9,716 nt of DNA, taken from assembly GCA_005801425.1 (NCBI GenBank), contig SYDY01000059.1, positions 1 to 9,716 on the forward strand, given 5' to 3'. Position 1 is the stretch's first letter. Each line of letters begins with the position of its first letter. Below the pieces are notes generated by a model. That model did not search any database, was not told the origin of the DNA, and saw only the letters and a program-made list of their open reading frames with translations. Both the position numbers and the translations under genes were made by a program. Positions 852-9,505 of the stretch are shown here, one piece after another. Source of the stretch: Bdellovibrionales bacterium. GTDB lineage: Bacteria > Myxococcota > XYA12-FULL-58-9 > SYDY01.

Positions 852-2078
852 GTGGATCCAAGCAAAGCTGGTGGTGGTGGTTCAGTTATTCATGCTCATC
901 AAGCAACAGAAGCTGCAGCCCCCCAAGTGCTAAAAAGCGCTTTAAAGCCACATACCCTCCTCCCTAAGGACACCGTTGGGCCTCCTGTGGTGTCTGCTTC
1001 TGGGCCGTCTAGGGCATTTAGTGTACTACCAGCGAATCCAAAAGATGTCGCAGGGAGTCAGTCAAGAGTCGATCAGAAGGCTATAGCGTCATTATCAGAG
1101 GGTATAGATACGTTATCGCAGCAGGGGATTATCATGCACCGCGATCTCCCTACAATAAAAGATCTGATAGATTTATGTCAGGCGCATGTGAAGACGGCAG
1201 GTCAACCACCCGGTGTTTCACGTGACGTGGTCATTACTTTGCGCAGGTGTGCTGAGGAACTGAACTACCTACTGCATCCAGAGCTCGCAAAGCGACACGA
1301 AATATCGATTGAACAGCCATCCTTCCTCGAGATCGAGCAGAAGGCCAGGACAGATCTGGAGCCGGCCCTACGGCAGCTTTTATATACCGCCAGTACGCTG
1401 CGGCATGACATGGCCGTGCGGGAGAATCTCCTCCCACCCACGTACCCGGAACCTAGCGCTACAAGCGAACGGAAAGCCGACGCCAGAAGAGTACAATGGG
1501 GAGAGCTCCCCCCATCGCATAAGGACAACGCAGCAGCGGTGCGACCAAAAGCACCAGCCGCCACACCGGCGAGTGCAGCACCTCAGACTCCAATAACGCT
1601 TATCGATGCATCAAAGCCCTACCTGCTCGGTGATTGTTACCGCATACAGGTGAAGGTGCAGTTGGACAAAGGCGACCCCGTTTCCATGTGCATTGAGTTA
1701 CCAACGGAATTTGACCCATTATCGGGGACCGGTGCCGATCTCGTGCATGGGATTTGGGATAGACTAAAGCAATTGCCCGAGATGAAAGAGGCTCTAAAAC
1801 AGAAGTTGGCTCCGGATCAGCAAATTGTTATTTCGGACGTAACCGAACCAGAGCCGATGATTGGGCGTGAGGATGAGCGGTTTCCTGATGCTCTTCAAAA
1901 CATGATTGAGGAAAGAGGATACACGGTCGTTGAGGGAGCAGCTCAAAAGCCGGGCAGCATATCATTTAGCGCTGAGACAGGTTACACGGTGTTGCCACTG
2001 GAGCCTCCGGGCAGTGTACATCACTTTGATACCCAGGCAAAACTCATTGCATGGCTGTTGGCAATTCCTGTGGCATGA
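852..2078 (+). CDS. hypothetical protein, disordered N-terminus and two predicted domains
   Basis: I do not recognise this 408-residue protein. It has no signal peptide or membrane segment, so it is probably cytosolic or exported by a non-Sec route. Residues 1-70 are rich in Gly, Pro, Ala and Ser and look disordered. Residues 73-193 look helical, with charged amphipathic stretches around 75-140 and 157-192. Residues 194-249 form a second Pro/Ala-rich linker. Residues 250-408 look like a mixed alpha/beta domain beginning near PYLLGDCYRIQV, with an acidic loop TEPEPMIGREDE (331-342) and an aromatic/aliphatic tail. It starts with GTG behind a purine-rich ribosome site. Its last 35 bases overlap the end of the convergent 2044-3213 gene. 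The disordered-N-terminus plan resembles the 5309-6430 product, but I see no sequence similarity. Frame length and ribosome site support a real gene; function is unknown. Confidence 0.72.
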   Translation: MDPSKAGGGGSVIHAHQATEAAAPQVLKSALKPHTLLPKDTVGPPVVSASGPSRAFSVLPANPKDVAGSQSRVDQKAIASLSEGIDTLSQQGIIMHRDLPTIKDLIDLCQAHVKTAGQPPGVSRDVVITLRRCAEELNYLLHPELAKRHEISIEQPSFLEIEQKARTDLEPALRQLLYTASTLRHDMAVRENLLPPTYPEPSATSERKADARRVQWGELPPSHKDNAAAVRPKAPAATPASAAPQTPITLIDASKPYLLGDCYRIQVKVQLDKGDPVSMCIELPTEFDPLSGTGADLVHGIWDRLKQLPEMKEALKQKLAPDQQIVISDVTEPEPMIGREDERFPDALQNMIEERGYTVVEGAAQKPGSISFSAETGYTVLPLEPPGSVHHFDTQAKLIAWLLAIPVA

Positions 2079-3213
2079 TCATGCCCATGGTATTTTTAAG
2101 CTCCCCGCGCTCTACGTCAGACAGAAAATCAAGCATTGCCATCACCGTGGGGCTTTCCATGGAAAATTCGTTATGGGGATGTGTTTTGGATAATTGCGAC
2201 AACGCAAACACATCTTTGGCGAGGCTGCCTAACGTCGCAATATCCATCGTCGATGCATCACGTGTCGCTTGGTGAAGCGCACCTACGTTGTTCCATACAC
2301 GTTCGTAGGCATGTGCAAACTCTGTGGCCTCATGTTTGGGCTTCAACACCGTCAACGCCCGCATGGCCCAGCGCGATACAGCGCATACGGTGCCAAGTTG
2401 CCAAACCCCTTGGGCATCGGCAGTCCCAAGGGCATGGGCTGCCTGAATATTTTTTGCAACATCGATGGGCTCGATCAGGGACAATAGGCGAAACCAAAAT
2501 CCAAAGGCTTTGCTGTCGTCAGCCACCAAATGCAAACCTGAAATATTGCGTTTCACATAACATTCGGTGGGGACAGGGCATGCCTCGGTGCCATACCAAA
2601 TACTAGGAAGGTCTGAGGATTGGAGTCTGTTATCATAGCGTAGGACATGGCGATGAACATCGAGAAAATCGCATACCCAGCCGCGCTGCAAGGCGATGCT
2701 GTGATCATGGGGAACATCCATCTGTGTCCAAACGCATGTTTGGATCCCGCCACTTAAGCGATCGCACACCGCGCTAAAAAGGCTTACCCACCACGATGCA
2801 AGATGATCCAAATCGGCTTCACGGGGATCGCCACGTGGCACGTTTTGCGCTTCAGAGGCGGCTGTTATCGCTTGTTGGGCAATTTGGATTGTACTAGCGG
2901 CACTTCCTGTCGACGCGCTTTGCAATACTTTGATGAGACGCGGCAGTGCTTTATCGGCGCGCAAAAGGGTGGCGACCAGGCCATGGGCGTGGGTGTATGC
3001 AGCGTCTGACGTATCGAGTCCAGGAGGAACTGGGGGGTAGGACAATTGCCCACGCACCAAATCATGACACACAGGGGTGTAAAAGCAGTGGATCCCTGTA
3101 CGGAAGTAATAATCAATATACGCAACTGGGATGATTGGCTTTTCCGAAGCCCCATCGTATGTCAATGTGCAATATTGTTGAACAGAGATACGGGTGACGG
3201 ACATCGGGCCCAT
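2044..3213 (-). CDS. hypothetical protein, mostly helical
   Basis: I do not recognise this protein of about 389 residues. It begins MGPMSVTRISVQQYC. The frame opens further upstream with a TTG at 3282, which would add a 23-residue Ile/Leu/Ser-rich extension; I prefer the ATG at 3213 or 3204 because neither the TTG nor the extension looks natural. No start has a clear Shine-Dalgarno sequence. The N-terminal third contains an aromatic and Cys-containing stretch (VAYIDYYFRTGIHCFYTPVC). The middle and C-terminal parts look helical, with Trp, His and Cys scattered through them, and the tail is Met-rich. There is no signal peptide or obvious membrane helix. It lies downstream of, and on the same strand as, the NlpC/P60-like gene 3304-4038 and could be co-transcribed with it. 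It converges on 852-2078 with a 35-base overlap. Confidence 0.68.
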   Translation of the reverse strand: MGPMSVTRISVQQYCTLTYDGASEKPIIPVAYIDYYFRTGIHCFYTPVCHDLVRGQLSYPPVPPGLDTSDAAYTHAHGLVATLLRADKALPRLIKVLQSASTGSAASTIQIAQQAITAASEAQNVPRGDPREADLDHLASWWVSLFSAVCDRLSGGIQTCVWTQMDVPHDHSIALQRGWVCDFLDVHRHVLRYDNRLQSSDLPSIWYGTEACPVPTECYVKRNISGLHLVADDSKAFGFWFRLLSLIEPIDVAKNIQAAHALGTADAQGVWQLGTVCAVSRWAMRALTVLKPKHEATEFAHAYERVWNNVGALHQATRDASTMDIATLGSLAKDVFALSQLSKTHPHNEFSMESPTVMAMLDFLSDVERGELKNTMGMIMPQELPTAMQ

Positions 3214-3303
3214 TATCGATTCATAATATCTAATGTTGCGAGATAGAGATGATAGGATAAATATCCATAGATGAATGGGCAACTGAGGTGGGACAGTGGT
3301 GTT

Positions 3304-4038
3304 TTATCCCCCGGCACTATCTTTAACATACTCTTCATAAGGTATGGCTTTTATCTGTTGGGTCGCCGGATCTTTTTCGTAGAAGTAAAGTTGTTCCCGT
3401 GGCACATGGCGTATCCAACATGGTACGTCATCACTTACAATCTTTCCAACATCGTAAATATCCATCATTTGTTCCATCGTCGTAACGATAACAGGTCCCA
3501 TACCCAATTTACTTAGAAAGTGAATGGAGTTGTCGGCGAGACGTACAGCAATCATTTCATGCTCGACGTCATCCTCTTTGCTGCGAAAACTCACCAAATC
3601 ACCTGACCGAACTGACGCTTGCGCATAGGCATGCCACTGCGCGAGAGGGGATGCTGAGTTTTCAATCTGAATATCTTTCATATGCGTCGCAGGTTTTTCC
3701 ATGCCATCATGACTGTGGATCATCCTATGTGCAGCGTCGTAAAGCGCAGTCCTGTTTGCATCATGTTCTGCAGGAATGCCTTCATGTTGTTTTGCGATGA
3801 CTGCTGCGGCAAACTCATTGCAATCAATGCCTCCGTCATACAAATTGCGTAAATACCAATTGGTGCTGTTGGGATTGGCGAGAATAAATGCACCCTTGTC
3901 ACATGCATCTTGTGTGGCGCTCATGTAGTCGGCGTTTGGGCAAAATGGTGCATCTGCTTTGGGAGGGTACGCGGTTGGAGGCGTCCAAGTAAACTCGGGC
4001 ATCATACGAAACACAGCCTCATGCAGGTCTTCTGGCAT
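3304..4038 (-). CDS. NlpC/P60-like cysteine-hydrolase or transferase-fold protein
   Basis: This 244-residue product carries a pattern like the NlpC/P60 papain-like fold. DCNEFAAAVI (72-81) has candidate nucleophile Cys73, compare DCSG-F. GDLVSF (146-151) matches the GDLVFF strand. HEMIAV (160-165) offers His160, compare HVGIY. SIHFLSKLGMGPV (171-183) offers His173. The Cys/His/His spacing, with 13 residues between the two His, is close to that of peptidoglycan endopeptidases such as E. coli Spr (as I recall it). Bacillus Tgl has the same core, so it may be a distant relative of the two Tgl-like genes at 5309-7248. There is no signal peptide, which argues against action on the cell's own murein. 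The ATG at 4038 has no Shine-Dalgarno sequence and lies in the same frame as 4054-4350, so this may be the C-terminal part of an interrupted gene. The family call is mine from motifs only. Confidence 0.62.
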   Translation of the reverse strand: MPEDLHEAVFRMMPEFTWTPPTAYPPKADAPFCPNADYMSATQDACDKGAFILANPNSTNWYLRNLYDGGIDCNEFAAAVIAKQHEGIPAEHDANRTALYDAAHRMIHSHDGMEKPATHMKDIQIENSASPLAQWHAYAQASVRSGDLVSFRSKEDDVEHEMIAVRLADNSIHFLSKLGMGPVIVTTMEQMMDIYDVGKIVSDDVPCWIRHVPREQLYFYEKDPATQQIKAIPYEEYVKDSAGG

Positions 4039-4428: not shown

Positions 4429-5358
4429 ATGGGTTCACCCATCCCAACCATCGCCCTCGTTGGCGCCACCGCCACAGGAAAAAGTGCGCTTGCCATGGCG
4501 TTGGCAGAGCGTTTGCAGGGCGAGATCGTCAATTGCGATTCACTGCAGGTGGTGCGTGGTTTTGATATTGGAACGGCCAAAGCAAGCATTGAAGAGCAAC
4601 GAAAAATCCCCCATCATCTGCTTGATGTCACCGAGGCCCATGCACCGCTGGATGCGTCGGTGTTTGCTGACATGGCACGCAAAATCATTACAGATATTCA
4701 GGCACGTGGTCGTGTGGCGATTGTGTGTGGAGGAACGGGACTTTATTTTCGTGCGTTGCGATGGGGGTTGATTGATGCGCCCGCAGCCGATCCCAATTTA
4801 CGAGAACATCTTGAAAAACAAGAAAAAGCGGGTCCAGGATTTTTGATGCGTCGTTTGCATGCGCTTGATCCCGAAGGGGCTGCAACCATCGATCATCACA
4901 ATCTTGTGCGTGTTTTGCGTGCTGTTGAGTTGTGTGAACTCACAGGAAAACCGGCAAGCAGTCTTCGTCATGAACATGGTTTTTCGCATGAGAAAATCCC
5001 CATGCATGCCCTATGGCTTCGTCGTCCTCGGGATGTTTTGCATGCGGCCATCGCGCAGCGCACCAAGCATATGCTTGAAAGTGGATTGATTGATGAAGTG
5101 CGAGGACTTCTTGCAAACGGTGTTGATCCTGCATGCCGCGCCATGCAATCGGTGGGGTACCGTGAAGTGCTGCAATTTCTTGCAGGCGAAATCTCAAAAG
5201 ATGATCTTGAACACACCATTACCGTGCGAACACGCCGTTATGCACGCCGTCAAGAAACCTGGTTTCGTGCGGAAAAAATGATGCGGTCGATAGAAGTGAC
5301 CAATGAAACTATTCCGATGCTTGCGGATCGTGCACAGGTGGAGTTATCGCACGCATGA
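4429..5358 (+). CDS. miaA: tRNA dimethylallyltransferase MiaA
   Basis: MiaA transfers a dimethylallyl group from DMAPP to N6 of A37 in tRNAs that read codons starting with U. The 309-residue product has the Walker A loop GATATGKS (12-19). NCDSLQVVRGFDIGTAKA (35-52) contains the catalytic-base Asp37; the usual Tyr of this motif is Val42 here. IPHHLLDV (60-67) and GGTGLYFRAL (101-110) follow, then QSVGYREVL in the second half and ARRQETWFR (272-280) near the end. Length is normal for the family. The ATG at 4429 directly abuts an AAAGAGG sequence, which is too close for a good Shine-Dalgarno; an upstream ATG at 4411 runs into a stop at once, so 4429 is the best start. The 3' end overlaps the convergent 5309-6430 gene by 50 bases. 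It stands alone here, without its common partners mutL or hfq. Confidence 0.96.
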   Translation: MGSPIPTIALVGATATGKSALAMALAERLQGEIVNCDSLQVVRGFDIGTAKASIEEQRKIPHHLLDVTEAHAPLDASVFADMARKIITDIQARGRVAIVCGGTGLYFRALRWGLIDAPAADPNLREHLEKQEKAGPGFLMRRLHALDPEGAATIDHHNLVRVLRAVELCELTGKPASSLRHEHGFSHEKIPMHALWLRRPRDVLHAAIAQRTKHMLESGLIDEVRGLLANGVDPACRAMQSVGYREVLQFLAGEISKDDLEHTITVRTRRYARRQETWFRAEKMMRSIEVTNETIPMLADRAQVELSHA

Positions 5359-6430
5359 GTGCTTCCGCGCTAACGCGTACGACATAGATGTGATTGCCGG
5401 CCGCCGTTTCGCTCGTAAATCCAGGAATATGGAGTTTCGAAATTGCATCCGGATCTAGCTTTCCCTCCATTGCGACTTGGTTGACATCTTGAAAATGTTC
5501 CGGGACGTCGGCCAATGCGAGGCGATGTGTTCCAAAGCCCCTCACAAAGCCTCTGTCCACAACAACAAAATATTCACCGGTCCACAAGCCACCTTTGACG
5601 TGCGTTCCATATTCATCTGCATTTTTTGCATATGCGACATCCCCGATTTGAAATTCGTCGGTAGACGGGACTTCATGAAACTGGAGAAATTTTCCGGGCT
5701 CAAGCGACGATCTTTTTCCACCCATATGGGTCCAGCCAAGGAGTTGGATTGTGCTAAGAAAGAGGTCTCCTTCTTTCATATAGAGACGATCGAAATTTTC
5801 GGGGCCAATGGCGCACATGACACCCAAAAGAATGCATGACTTCGCACCTGTTTGGCAGTCCAAAGTGGACACAGCTTCATCGGGGGCACTTCCAAGGGTT
5901 TTGCCTTTTGTGAATATATTGGAAATCGCTTCGCTGGGGGTTGTGCTTGGCGGTGGCACCGCTCTGGTGCCTTGTGGTTGCCAGTCGAGGGGCTTGATTT
6001 TATCTTTTGGAGTGGCTGGATAATACGCAACACCGCCATTGAGTATTTCCATCGCTTTCGCGGTTGCGTGGGTGACCACATGCTGGAGTCTTTGGACTTC
6101 GTCTGTAGGGTCGCCTCTGTACGGAGGAATGGATTGATTGATGATTTCCACGACATCATTCGGTGTTGATCTTAATTGGATCATACGTGCCGTTGTCGAC
6201 CTGAGCGATGGTGGTGTTGTGGGAGCCGAAGGGTGACTGGCCTCCGATGATTGCAGCAAAGAAGGTGCTATGGGTGCGGGACGATTGGGTGGCGGGGGGA
6301 TTTGTTTAGGGCGTGTTGTCGTTGCCGAAGATGGATCATCAGCAGCAACTGCGTGGAGATCAGTGATTTCAGCTGATTGCGAACGGTCCACAACCGGCAC
6401 GGGCGACCCTGTTCTGTGAACATCTGACAT
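5309..6430 (-). CDS. Tgl-like transglutaminase-fold protein with disordered N-terminus; His position is Arg
   Basis: The 373-residue product has two parts. Residues 1-85 are Pro/Ser/Thr/Ala-rich, with a PPPP run at 45-48, and look disordered. Residues 86-363 align by eye with the neighbour 6442-7248 and with Bacillus Tgl, the protein-glutamine gamma-glutamyltransferase: PSEAISNIF (165-173), DCQTG with candidate nucleophile Cys192, AIGPENFDRL (207-216), GDVAYAKN (263-270), WTGE with Glu286, and a RGFG segment (297-300). In Bacillus Tgl the catalytic Cys, Glu and His sit in FEC, GEN and HG-G. Here Cys and Glu are kept, but the His position is Arg297 (codon at 5540-5542), so activity may be changed or lost. 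It lies 11 bases downstream of its paralogue, so the two are probably one operon. No signal peptide is present. The 3' end overlaps miaA by 50 bases. Confidence 0.72.
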   Translation of the reverse strand: MSDVHRTGSPVPVVDRSQSAEITDLHAVAADDPSSATTTRPKQIPPPPNRPAPIAPSLLQSSEASHPSAPTTPPSLRSTTARMIQLRSTPNDVVEIINQSIPPYRGDPTDEVQRLQHVVTHATAKAMEILNGGVAYYPATPKDKIKPLDWQPQGTRAVPPPSTTPSEAISNIFTKGKTLGSAPDEAVSTLDCQTGAKSCILLGVMCAIGPENFDRLYMKEGDLFLSTIQLLGWTHMGGKRSSLEPGKFLQFHEVPSTDEFQIGDVAYAKNADEYGTHVKGGLWTGEYFVVVDRGFVRGFGTHRLALADVPEHFQDVNQVAMEGKLDPDAISKLHIPGFTSETAAGNHIYVVRVSAEALMRAITPPVHDPQASE

Positions 6431-6441
6431 GATCTATTGTC

Positions 6442-7248
6442 TCATAGTTCTGGCCGTGCGGCTTGTCGTTTTGGGGGATCCAACAAACGCATGAGCTGTT
6501 CCACATCGACGCGCAAAACATAAAATGGTGTTTTGCTGTATGCGCGTAGGCCTGGAAGCTCGGATGTGGTCTTTTGAAGGGGTGGAGGTGCGCCGTGGTT
6601 GTATGCCTCGGTTAGCCATTGAACGTACTGCTGTTCGGTGCCTTTGTCGCATCCGTAACCATGGTAGAGGTTGCTTCCCAAAGTAATGACATGCTCTCCG
6701 GAAAACCCACCCCCAGGATTCCATTGCATGTAATCATCGTGATTTTTGAAATAGGTCCAGTCGCCGATCCGCAATTCTTCTGGGTTCTGCACCTCGGTAA
6801 ATTTAAGTAGGCGTTGGGGCCCGAAATGTGCGCCGGTCTGCCCTAAACGGGTCCAGGCCAAGATGGCTATACGGCTGATGCGCAATGTCCCGGCTGGAAA
6901 CAGTCGATCGAAGTCTTCCGAACCGATAGCGTCGTGCAATCCTTTGAGCACTGAGAGGTGTGCGGCCATCTGGCACTCCATGCGTGGAGGCGAGATAAAG
7001 GTGGAGCGTATGGCTTCTGAACTGGATACGTCAGGCACTGCGACCAGTGCTGGACCTTGGGCTTGCCACATGTTTGAGAGTGCCATTCCAGTTGATGTGT
7101 GAAGTCTTTCGGAATGGTGCAGGGCATCCATGGCGTCGGCGGTATATCGGCCAATGGCCTCTGCAAGCATTTCAGGTGAAAGCCGCTCATACGATTTTTT
7201 GTCTTGCACATTCACAGTGGGTACTCGGGCGTCGCCGATTATTTTCAT
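6442..7248 (-). CDS. Tgl-like protein-glutamine gamma-glutamyltransferase family protein
   Basis: This 268-residue product closely follows the plan of Bacillus Tgl, which forms isopeptide bonds between Gln and Lys side chains using an NlpC/P60-type core. Visible motifs in order are SSEAIRSTF (76-84), MEC with Glu91 and nucleophile Cys92, DAIGSEDFDRLF (106-117), GDWTYFKN (162-169), SGEHVITLG with Glu185 (183-191), and YHGYG with His196 (195-199). All three catalytic positions reported for Bacillus Tgl (Cys, Glu, His) are present, so it may be active. Length is near that of Tgl (about 245). There is no signal peptide or disordered head, unlike the paralogue 5309-6430 that follows 11 bases downstream. 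The start at 7248 has no Shine-Dalgarno but has a promoter-like sequence just upstream. Substrate and role are unknown; hydrolase or deamidase chemistry is equally possible on this fold. Confidence 0.75.
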   Translation of the reverse strand: MKIIGDARVPTVNVQDKKSYERLSPEMLAEAIGRYTADAMDALHHSERLHTSTGMALSNMWQAQGPALVAVPDVSSSEAIRSTFISPPRMECQMAAHLSVLKGLHDAIGSEDFDRLFPAGTLRISRIAILAWTRLGQTGAHFGPQRLLKFTEVQNPEELRIGDWTYFKNHDDYMQWNPGGGFSGEHVITLGSNLYHGYGCDKGTEQQYVQWLTEAYNHGAPPPLQKTTSELPGLRAYSKTPFYVLRVDVEQLMRLLDPPKRQAARPEL

Positions 7249-7344: not shown

Positions 7345-8433
7345 ATGAACGATAAAAAGACCGAAGACGCTTTGTGTGCGTTGCGCAATCAAGTCGACGC
7401 ATTGGATGAGAAGATCGTGTCGCTTCTCAATGGGCGTGCGCAATTGGCCCTTGATATTGGTCAGGTGAAGCACGCGAGTGGCCAAAAAATCTATGCGCCC
7501 CAGCGTGAGCGCATGGTGCTTCAACGTATTTCTGATAAAAACACAGGCCCCTTGCCCGATGAGAGCATTACGCTGATTTACAAAGAAATCATCAGCGCAT
7601 CGCTTGCTTTGGAGCAGCCGCTTCAAGTGGCGTTTGTGGGTCCCGAAGCAAGCTTTACCCATCAAGCCACCAAACGACATTTTGGTTTGAGTGCACAATC
7701 ACAGGTGAGTCGTACCATCGAAGATGTTTTCGACAGTGTCTCGCGTGGACGTTGTGCCTATGGCGTTGTGCCGGTGGAGTCGTCGTCGGTTGGGGCGGTG
7801 GCAGGAACGCTCGATGCATTGGTGCGTTATGATCTTAAGATCTGCGCCGAAATATTGCTCGAAGTAAGCCATCATTTGCTGACGCGATCGGGGCACTTGG
7901 ACGGGATCAACAAGATCTACGGTGAAGCCGAAAACATCGGTTCCTGCCGCGTATGGCTTGATGAAAATTTGCCAGGCATTCCATTGATTGATGTTTCAAC
8001 TATGGGACGTGCCGCAGAGCTCGCAGCCAGCGACGCATCGGCTGCGGCCATTGGCACTGACCTTGCGGGTTCTATTTATGGCATTCGTGTTGCAACACCA
8101 AGACTCGATAACACAGCAGGCGATCTCGCACGCTTTTTTGTGATTGGGAGCGATGCGGCCGATCCCACAGGGACCGATCGTACGTCGATTGTGTTTGCAC
8201 TTCCCGACGATCCGGGGGTTTTGTTCAAAGTGTTGGAACCCTTGGCCAAGGAAGGGATCAACATGTCACGCATCGAATCGCGTCCCGCTCGCGGACGTGC
8301 GTGGGACTATATGTTTTTCGTGGATGTTGAGGGACATCAGCGCGATCCACACATTGCAGCGGCCTTAAAAGAAATGCAGTCCATTTCTGTATTCTTTCGC
8401 ATCCTCGGAAGTTACCCGCGCGGAGAGTTATAA
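7345..8433 (+). CDS. pheA: P-protein: chorismate mutase fused to a degenerate prephenate dehydratase and ACT domain
   Basis: The P-protein turns chorismate into prephenate (AroQ domain) and prephenate into phenylpyruvate (PDT domain), with Phe feedback through ACT. Residues 1-91 form an apparently complete AroQ mutase: Arg14, Arg31, Lys42, Arg54, Glu55 and Gln91 match the E. coli residues with a +3 shift. The PDT region starts VAFVGPEASFTHQA (95-108) and aligns along its whole length, but key positions differ: the VENS motif is VESS (144-147), the YSH-x-Q-x3-QC motif is IYGEAENIGSC (191-201), and the TRF motif is ARF (262-264). Dehydratase activity is therefore doubtful. The ACT domain (about 277-350) keeps DPGVLF (GALY-like) and ESRP. 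Total length of 362 is typical. The ATG at 7345 has no Shine-Dalgarno. The stop is one base before the hisC start, so the two genes form an operon. Confidence 0.95.
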   Translation: MNDKKTEDALCALRNQVDALDEKIVSLLNGRAQLALDIGQVKHASGQKIYAPQRERMVLQRISDKNTGPLPDESITLIYKEIISASLALEQPLQVAFVGPEASFTHQATKRHFGLSAQSQVSRTIEDVFDSVSRGRCAYGVVPVESSSVGAVAGTLDALVRYDLKICAEILLEVSHHLLTRSGHLDGINKIYGEAENIGSCRVWLDENLPGIPLIDVSTMGRAAELAASDASAAAIGTDLAGSIYGIRVATPRLDNTAGDLARFFVIGSDAADPTGTDRTSIVFALPDDPGVLFKVLEPLAKEGINMSRIESRPARGRAWDYMFFVDVEGHQRDPHIAAALKEMQSISVFFRILGSYPRGEL

Positions 8434-8434
8434 T

Positions 8435-9505
8435 ATGCTAAAACTTGCAAACGACAGTTACGATCATTTGAAACCGTACGTTCCAGGAAAGCCCATCAGC
8501 GAAACACAACGCGAGCTTGGACTTGAACGTTGTATCAAGCTTGCGTCCAATGAAAATCCATTGGGTCCTTCGCCGAAAGCGCTTGCGGCCGCAACACGTG
8601 CATTACAGCATATCAATGACTATCCCGATGGTGGCGCGTATGCGTTAAAACAAGGCCTTTCGCGTTTTCTTGATGTTTCATCTGATATGTTGATTGTGGG
8701 GAATGGTACCAACGAATTGATCGAGATGCTGATCCGTACGTTCATCCGTCCCGATGAAAACTTGCTGTATATTCAAGGAACGTTCATTGCGTATCGTTTG
8801 TGTGCCGAAGCCGCAGGTGTTGCAATTAAAGATGTCGGTAACGATCTTGACGCCATCATCGCCGCCATCGATGAAAAAACAAAAATGGTGTTCATCGGAA
8901 ATCCCAACAATCCCACGGGAAGTTACATCAACAAAAAAGACTTAGAATATTTTCTAGGAAAAGTTCCGTGTGATGTGATCGTGGTGCTTGATGAAGCCTA
9001 TTTTGAATATGCGACGGCGCCCGATTATCCCAATGGCCTTGCGTTTTTAAGTTCTCATGATCGTCTTGTGGTCACGCGCACATTTTCCAAATGCTATGGT
9101 CTTGCCGGTTTGCGTGTGGGCTATGCTGTGGCCCAACCTGAATTGATTGATTACCTCAACAGGGGACGTCAGCCTTTTAACGTGAGTAGCATTGCCCAAG
9201 AAGCGGCGCTAGCGGCCCTTGACGATCAAGAACATGTGAAGCGCTCGGTTGCCATGAACGCCCAAGAAATGCAGCGTGTGGTGCCTGCACTTGAATCACG
9301 TGGTTTGAAAGTAACACCGAGCCAAGGCAATTTTGTTCTGGTGGATTTTCATCAACCCGCACACGATGTGTTTCAAAAACTGTTGCACCAAGGTGTGATT
9401 GTGCGTCCCATGGCGGGGTATGGTTTTGCCACATCGCAACGGATCACGCTTGGAACACCCGAACAAAATGATATGCTGTTGCACGCGATTGATACGGTTT
9501 CATGA
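8435..9505 (+). CDS. hisC: histidinol-phosphate/aromatic aminotransferase, HisC2-type
   Basis: This PLP-dependent class I/II aminotransferase of 356 residues converts imidazole acetol-phosphate and, in HisC2-type proteins next to pheA, probably phenylpyruvate or 4-hydroxyphenylpyruvate. Motifs: KLASNENPLGPSP (35-47), NPNNPTG (156-162), DEAYFEY (186-192), TFSKCYGLAGLRVGY (216-230) with PLP Lys219 and phosphate-binding Arg227, and QRITLGTPEQN (335-345) with substrate-carboxylate Arg336. Length is normal. GGAGAG at 8422-8427 gives a good ribosome site seven bases before the ATG, lying inside the end of pheA; only one base separates the two genes, so they are probably translationally coupled. No other histidine gene is near, and the pheA context favours a role in Phe/Tyr synthesis. 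Specificity cannot be settled by sequence alone. Confidence 0.95.
   Translation: MLKLANDSYDHLKPYVPGKPISETQRELGLERCIKLASNENPLGPSPKALAAATRALQHINDYPDGGAYALKQGLSRFLDVSSDMLIVGNGTNELIEMLIRTFIRPDENLLYIQGTFIAYRLCAEAAGVAIKDVGNDLDAIIAAIDEKTKMVFIGNPNNPTGSYINKKDLEYFLGKVPCDVIVVLDEAYFEYATAPDYPNGLAFLSSHDRLVVTRTFSKCYGLAGLRVGYAVAQPELIDYLNRGRQPFNVSSIAQEAALAALDDQEHVKRSVAMNAQEMQRVVPALESRGLKVTPSQGNFVLVDFHQPAHDVFQKLLHQGVIVRPMAGYGFATSQRITLGTPEQNDMLLHAIDTVS

What the first reader, a model, noticed from the sequence alone, without database searches (positions are those of the whole stretch)
7345..8433. P-protein whose prephenate dehydratase active site appears erased while chorismate mutase and ACT stay intact
Seen: the PDT domain aligns collinearly with proteobacterial P-proteins, but the VENS Asn is Ser146 (codon 7780-7782), the YSH-x-Q-x3-QC motif reads YGEAENIGSC at 192-201 (Ser to Gly193, His to Glu194, last Gln to Ser200), and the TRF Thr is Ala262 (codon 8128-8130). 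Known: the TRF Thr (Thr278 in E. coli P-protein) is required for dehydratase activity and the other positions are strongly conserved. The mutase residues Arg14, Arg31, Lys42, Arg54, Glu55 and Gln91 and the ACT ESRP motif are kept. Inference: the protein may be a Phe-regulated chorismate mutase without dehydratase activity, or act on another substrate.
Basis: partly seen in the sequence, partly recalled or inferred. Interest (0 to 1): 0.75.

Follow-up and report, generated by a model that had tools for sequence, protein, structure and literature searches.

The report
Chorismate mutase with a dead domain
A normally two-activity enzyme for making phenylalanine has kept its first activity and its phenylalanine sensor but seems to have lost the active site of its second, because another gene in the same genome now carries that step, and the same loss happened separately in a second family of the same phylum.

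Summary
Confirmed and explained. window:7345-8433 encodes a colinear CM-PDT-ACT P-protein whose prephenate dehydratase (PDT) site is erased (E. coli N160, S208, Q215, T234, N276, T278 all replaced). It misses 11 of 25 conserved PDT columns; 84 intact PDTs miss 0-6. Against its nearest intact relative (G001) motif columns are 29% identical, the rest of PDT 59%, CM 54%, ACT 58%: fold kept, site lost. The gene holds the genome's only CM_2 domain. The genome has a second, intact PDT, in a PDT-ACT-TyrA fusion on contig C27 that is also its only TyrA. So the protein is most likely a Phe-regulated, mutase-only pseudo-P-protein feeding prephenate to that fusion. Four P-proteins of family f15 show similar erosion, each beside a separate intact PDT; a full-length tree rejects common origin with the window (AU p 0.004-0.006). 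In G002 (same order) PDT and ACT are gone, CM is fused to the aminotransferase, and a TyrA-PDT-ACT fusion lies elsewhere. Not shown: enzyme activities; the structure model was too poor to use. New variant of a known kind.

The parts
7345..8433 (+). pheA-like gene: chorismate mutase - eroded prephenate dehydratase - ACT (362 aa)
   Evidence: ORF and translation; Pfam/NCBIfam; only CM_2 in the genome
7381..7617 (+). chorismate mutase domain (residues 13-91), active-site residues R14, R31, K42, R54, E55 kept; E90 at the E. coli Q88 position
   Evidence: PF01817; alignment to E. coli PheA
7627..8154 (+). prephenate dehydratase domain with erased active site
   Evidence: PF00800 match 7627-8154; conservation and alignment
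7777..7794 (+). E-S-S-S-V-G in place of E-N-S-T-E-G (N160 equivalent = S146)
7918..7947 (+). YGEAENIGSC (residues 192-201) in place of YSHPQALAQC
7993..8007 (+). V-S-T-M-G (residues 217-221) in place of V-S-S-T-A (T234 equivalent = M220)
8122..8136 (+). D-L-A-R-F (residues 260-264) in place of N-x-T-R-F (N276 = D260, T278 = A262)
8185..8373 (+). ACT regulatory domain (residues 281-343) with intact ESRP (311-314)
   Evidence: PF01842; alignment
8435..9505 (+). hisC-family aminotransferase, starts 1 base after the pheA stop; same neighbour as in G001 and the fusion partner of CM in G002
4429..5358 (+). miaA (context: upstream neighbour of pheA in G001 and of the CM-hisC fusion in G002)

Best explanation
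A pseudo-P-protein. The N-terminal domain makes prephenate from chorismate and is the genome's only detected CM_2 chorismate mutase. The middle domain keeps the PDT fold but has lost the residues that bind and dehydrate prephenate. The C-terminal ACT domain keeps the Phe-binding ESRP motif, so Phe probably still down-regulates the mutase through the dead domain, as in classical P-proteins. Prephenate goes to a separate PDT-ACT-TyrA fusion (G000:C27) that makes both phenylpyruvate and 4-hydroxyphenylpyruvate; an aminotransferase, probably the adjacent hisC-like one, finishes Phe and Tyr. The erosion became tolerable once the second PDT was present. Shown: sequence changes, gene content, intact relatives, a rejected common origin with the f15 cases, purifying selection on the PDT scaffold in f15. 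Inferred: loss of dehydratase activity, retained mutase activity and Phe control, order of events.
For: Residues: seven PDT positions changed, incl. T278, Q215, N160, S208; 11 of 25 conserved columns missed, against 0-6 in 84 intact PDTs. Conservation is inverted: motif columns 29% identical to G001 against 59% for the rest of PDT (Fisher p 0.008), while G001 vs G017 is 75% vs 63%. Replacement: one CM_2; second PDT with EN, S, Q, ST, N and TRF kept, fused to TyrA; no other TyrA, the second weak hit looks like ProC by sequence. Reciprocal: the fusion's ACT reads HSRP for ESRP. Parallel: four f15 P-proteins eroded, each with the only CM_2 and a separate intact PDT; common origin with the window rejected, AU p 0.004 and 0.006. 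G002: PDT and ACT deleted, CM fused to hisC, TyrA-PDT-ACT elsewhere. None of 14 sampled single-PDT genomes with a P-protein has lost the N160, Q215 or T278 equivalents. PDT scaffold dN/dS about 0.24-0.42 in f15. The TRF triad is described as critical for substrate binding and catalysis in PMC10845154.
Against: No assay. No usable structure: AlphaFold with three sequences gave mean pLDDT 44. Residues can migrate; T219 lies next to the lost T234 position. GqqA complements a pheA mutant although its authors find only two of four E. coli catalytic residues conserved (PMC8192741). The tree of PDT+ACT alone does not quite reject one origin of the eroded P-proteins (p 0.068). A second PDT is permissive, not sufficient: sampled f19 genomes with two PDTs keep both largely intact. 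The genome is a draft in 121 contigs, and its family has no other member in the searched set.
Confidence: 0.85

Rival explanations
1. The PDT domain is not merely dead but has acquired a new ligand or reaction in its cleft, for example sensing another pathway metabolite.
For: The scaffold is under purifying selection in f15; window and f15 made some of the same replacements independently (N160S, S208G, P210A, E at residue 196). GqqA is a PDT homologue reported with an extra acylase activity (PMC8192741).
Against: The shared replacements look like small, easy substitutions (inspection, not tested), and some occur in otherwise intact PDTs (E196 in L069, L076, L081; N160S in L048, L052). The f15 four differ from each other at several sites. 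No genomic context points to another substrate.
Confidence: 0.12
2. The PDT domain is neutral baggage on the way to deletion, as in G002, with no structural or regulatory role. (Compatible with a mutase-only protein; it differs from the best explanation only in denying the domain a role.)
For: G002 shows that the domain can be deleted and CM fused to the aminotransferase.
Against: Outside the motifs, window PDT diverged from G001 no faster than CM or ACT (dN 0.35 against 0.44 and 0.39), f15 PDT scaffolds have dN/dS about 0.24-0.42, and ACT with ESRP is kept in all five eroded proteins.
Confidence: 0.2
3. The domain still dehydrates prephenate or arogenate, weakly, with displaced residues.
For: E159 equivalent, R263, F264, C201 and several glycines are kept. 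PDTs can tolerate some loss: GqqA complements pheA (PMC8192741).
Against: Q215 and T278 equivalents are 100% and 99% conserved in 84 intact PDTs and both are lost here, with N160, S208, T234 and N276. Plant arogenate dehydratases also mostly keep TRF (PMC10845154), so a switch to arogenate would not explain the loss.
Confidence: 0.08
4. Sequencing, assembly or frameshift artefact, or contamination.
For: Draft genome in 121 contigs.
Against: Single open frame, all domains intact, other frames do not restore the motifs; GC 0.508 here and 0.493 on C27; completeness 100, contamination 1.34; expected gene order; parallel cases in other genomes.
Confidence: 0.01

Closest known systems
P-protein (AroQ-PheA-ACT, bifunctional chorismate mutase/prephenate dehydratase, CM_P2 type)
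   Same: Same domain order, colinear over the whole length, 55% identical to the intact G001 protein, aminotransferase gene next door.
   Different: PDT active site erased; NCBIfam PDT equivalog PRK11898 scores just under its cut-off (218.1 against 219).
CM fused to HisC-like aminotransferase in G002
   Same: Same locus (miaA upstream; aroA and cmk downstream in G001 and G002), CM kept, dehydratase found in a TyrA fusion elsewhere.
   Different: PDT and ACT are deleted, so no ACT-based Phe control.
TyrA-AroF of Pseudomonas syringae, with one fusion domain disrupted (PMC1173090)
   Same: Catalytic function of one fused aromatic-pathway domain discarded and the partner kept; the authors suggested the remnant might become a regulatory domain.
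   Different: There the lost domain is a truncated AroF; here a full-length PDT is lost by point changes, with its ACT sensor kept.
GqqA of Komagataeibacter europaeus (PMC8192741)
   Same: PDT homologue with departures from E. coli catalytic residues.
   Different: Monofunctional PDT-ACT that still complements pheA and is reported as an N-acyl-homoserine lactone acylase.
PDT/TyrA fusions (TyrA-AroQ-PheA-ACT of Archaeoglobus, PMC1173090; G002 and G048 TyrA-PDT-ACT)
   Same: Join dehydratase and dehydrogenase on one chain, like the C27 gene; PDT domains of the G000, G002 and G048 fusions form one clade (100/98).
   Different: G000 has the opposite order (PDT-ACT-TyrA) and no CM in the chain.

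Membership tests
Bifunctional chorismate mutase/prephenate dehydratase (P-protein) | CM_2, PDT and ACT domains in this order on one chain | tested here: met
   Pfam, all over cut-off
Bifunctional chorismate mutase/prephenate dehydratase (P-protein) | Chorismate mutase catalytic residues (R11, R28, K39, R51, E52, Q88 or E) | tested here: met
   Alignment to E. coli PheA; Q88 position is E90, as in most relatives
Bifunctional chorismate mutase/prephenate dehydratase (P-protein) | PDT catalytic residues (N160, S208, Q215, T278 of E. coli) | tested here: not met
   S146, G193, S200, A262; 11 of 25 conserved columns missed
Bifunctional chorismate mutase/prephenate dehydratase (P-protein) | ACT with Phe-binding ESRP motif | tested here: met
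   E311-P314
Bifunctional chorismate mutase/prephenate dehydratase (P-protein) | Both enzyme activities | not testable with these tools
   Needs assay or complementation
NCBIfam PRK11898 prephenate dehydratase equivalog | Score over curated cut-off | tested here: not met
   218.1 against 219 bits; the intact-looking C27 fusion also falls short, 189.3, so this alone does not show loss
CM_P2 chorismate mutase (TIGR01807) | Score over curated cut-off | tested here: met
   83.5 against 69.55 bits
Pseudoenzyme domain (catalytically dead, fold kept) | Catalytic residues lost while the rest of the domain is conserved | tested here: met
   Motif identity 29% against 59% for the rest; dN/dS of the scaffold below 1 in f15; for the window itself dS against G001 is near saturation

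The most novel reading that the evidence does not exclude
In at least two lineages of this phylum the dead PDT domain of a P-protein was remodelled, with some of the same replacements (S at N160, G at S208, A at P210, E at residue 196), into a new non-catalytic sensing domain that controls the only chorismate mutase.
Probability: 0.12. Interest if true: 0.75.

Novelty: new variant of a known kind. Interest (0 to 1): 0.5.

Why it matters
It catches a bifunctional enzyme between states: intact (G001, G003), active site erased with the rest of the domain kept (window, f15), domain deleted and partner fused to the next enzyme (G002). That makes the fate of a redundant domain in a fusion enzyme testable, and asks whether a dead catalytic domain is kept to pass Phe feedback to its partner. 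It is also a practical annotation trap: by Pfam the gene is a PDT, but the dehydratase is probably the gene on another contig.

Tried and rejected
Frameshift artefact: rejected. Common origin of the eroded P-proteins: PDT+ACT tree inconclusive (p 0.068), full-length P-protein tree rejects it with and without most motif columns. Window PDT as sister of the C27 fusion PDT (recent duplication): rejected, p 0.0016. Missing CM in other f15 genomes as hidden eroded P-proteins: six have CM-DAHP synthase instead. Literature search for pseudo-PDT cases: no such case apparent among the six papers returned. P-proteins on plasmids gave only distant relatives, not pursued. The E. coli and Corynebacterium mutagenesis papers (Zhang 2000; Hsu 2004) were not read; they are known here only as cited in PMC10845154 and PMC8192741.

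Full report
The observation. The 362-residue ORF at 7345-8433 is as described, with CM_2, PDT and ACT domains well over Pfam cut-offs. The gapless alignment with the intact P-protein of G001 (55% identical, same order) and the alignment with E. coli PheA fix the correspondences: N160>S146, S208>G193, H209>E194, P210>A195, Q215>S200, T234>M220, N276>D260, T278>A262, with E159, C216, R279 and F280 kept. Other frames do not restore the motifs.

More than chance. Among 84 other intact PDTs of the phylum, Q215 is invariant and T278 99% conserved. Of 25 columns conserved at 85% or more, the window misses 11; intact PDTs miss 0 to 6. Conservation is inverted: window against G001, 7 of 24 motif columns are identical against 92 of 155 for the rest of PDT (Fisher p 0.008), whereas G001 against G017 gives 18 of 24 and 97 of 155. 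The motif columns were chosen from the finding, so the less biased measure is.

The genome. The only CM_2 domain is in this gene. The only other PDT is at G000:C27, a frame of 588 residues (586 from its first GTG) with PDT, ACT and both TyrA domains. It is also the only convincing TyrA, the second hit looking like ProC by its sequence. Its PDT keeps EN, S, Q, ST, N and TRF; the His of SH is Lys, but the solved PDT 2qmw also lacks that His. Its ACT reads HSRP where the window protein has ESRP, and is just under the Pfam cut-off, so Phe sensing may have stayed with the mutase protein. This last point rests on one genome.

Relatives. The order has eight held genomes. G001 and G003 have intact P-proteins. 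G001 reads miaA-pheA-hisC-aroA-cmk; G002 reads miaA-[CM-hisC fusion]-aroA-cmk, with PDT and ACT gone, and has a TyrA-PDT-ACT fusion elsewhere. In the window two genes with TGL similarity lie between miaA and pheA, and hisC follows pheA after one base. aroA, cmk and miaA in G001 and G002 were named by inspection of their sequences.

A parallel case. Family f15 of the same phylum has four P-proteins with eroded sites: all four lost S208, H209, T234 and N276; three lost N160; G057 and G041 lost Q215; G041 has T278S. Each of these genomes has a separate intact PDT and this as its only CM_2. In the 90-row PDT tree the window groups with G001 and G017, the f15 four with G112. Holding window and f15 together is not rejected on PDT+ACT (p 0.068) but is rejected on CM-PDT-ACT, p 0.006 with all columns and 0.004 without most motif columns. 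So I count two independent erosions plus one deletion (G002). All three occur where another PDT exists; 14 sampled single-PDT genomes with a P-protein keep the N160, Q215 and T278 equivalents. A second PDT does not force erosion: sampled f19 genomes with two PDTs keep both largely intact. Three events is a small number.

Why the domain stays. Between f15 pairs the PDT scaffold has dN/dS near 0.24 to 0.42, like CM (0.23-0.30) and ACT (0.30-0.36); motif columns are 0.35 to 0.74. For the window against G001 dS is near saturation, but scaffold dN (0.35) does not exceed CM (0.44) or ACT (0.39). This supports a structural or regulatory role over free decay; it is inferred, not shown.

Literature. 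The TRF triad is described as critical for substrate binding and catalysis (PMC10845154). Song et al. 2005 note in P. syringae TyrA-AroF an unusual case of one fused catalytic domain discarded, and suggest the remnant could become a regulatory domain (PMC1173090). GqqA warns that a PDT homologue with departures from E. coli catalytic residues can still complement pheA (PMC8192741).

Noticed in passing
L012 (G006:C645), 1117-2607 +: A DAHP synthase in the same order carries an N-terminal shrunken PDT-ACT piece (PDT below cut-off, SRF for TRF, ESRP lost): another fate of a PDT-ACT module.
   Followed up: partly
L001 (G000:C27), L011 (G002), L067 (G048): PDT domains of these fusions form one clade (100/98) but TyrA lies after PDT-ACT in G000 and before it in G002 and G048.
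   Followed up: partly
L085-L090: f14 genomes have long frames with PDT near the start and a CM-like stretch near the end; the middle was not identified.
   Followed up: no
L109-L114: Six f15 genomes without a P-protein have a CM fused to a DAHP synthase (by inspection) instead.
   Followed up: partly
window 5309-6430 and 6442-7248, - strand: Two neighbouring genes with similarity to protein-glutamine gamma-glutamyltransferase (TGL; the first just below cut-off) sit between miaA and pheA, which are adjacent in G001.
   Followed up: no
window 852-2078 +, 2044-3282 -, 3304-4038 -: Three sizeable ORFs without any Pfam match.
   Followed up: no
L048, L052, L054, L056: The monofunctional PDT next to an intact P-protein has VESS for VENS with the other motifs kept.
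   Followed up: no
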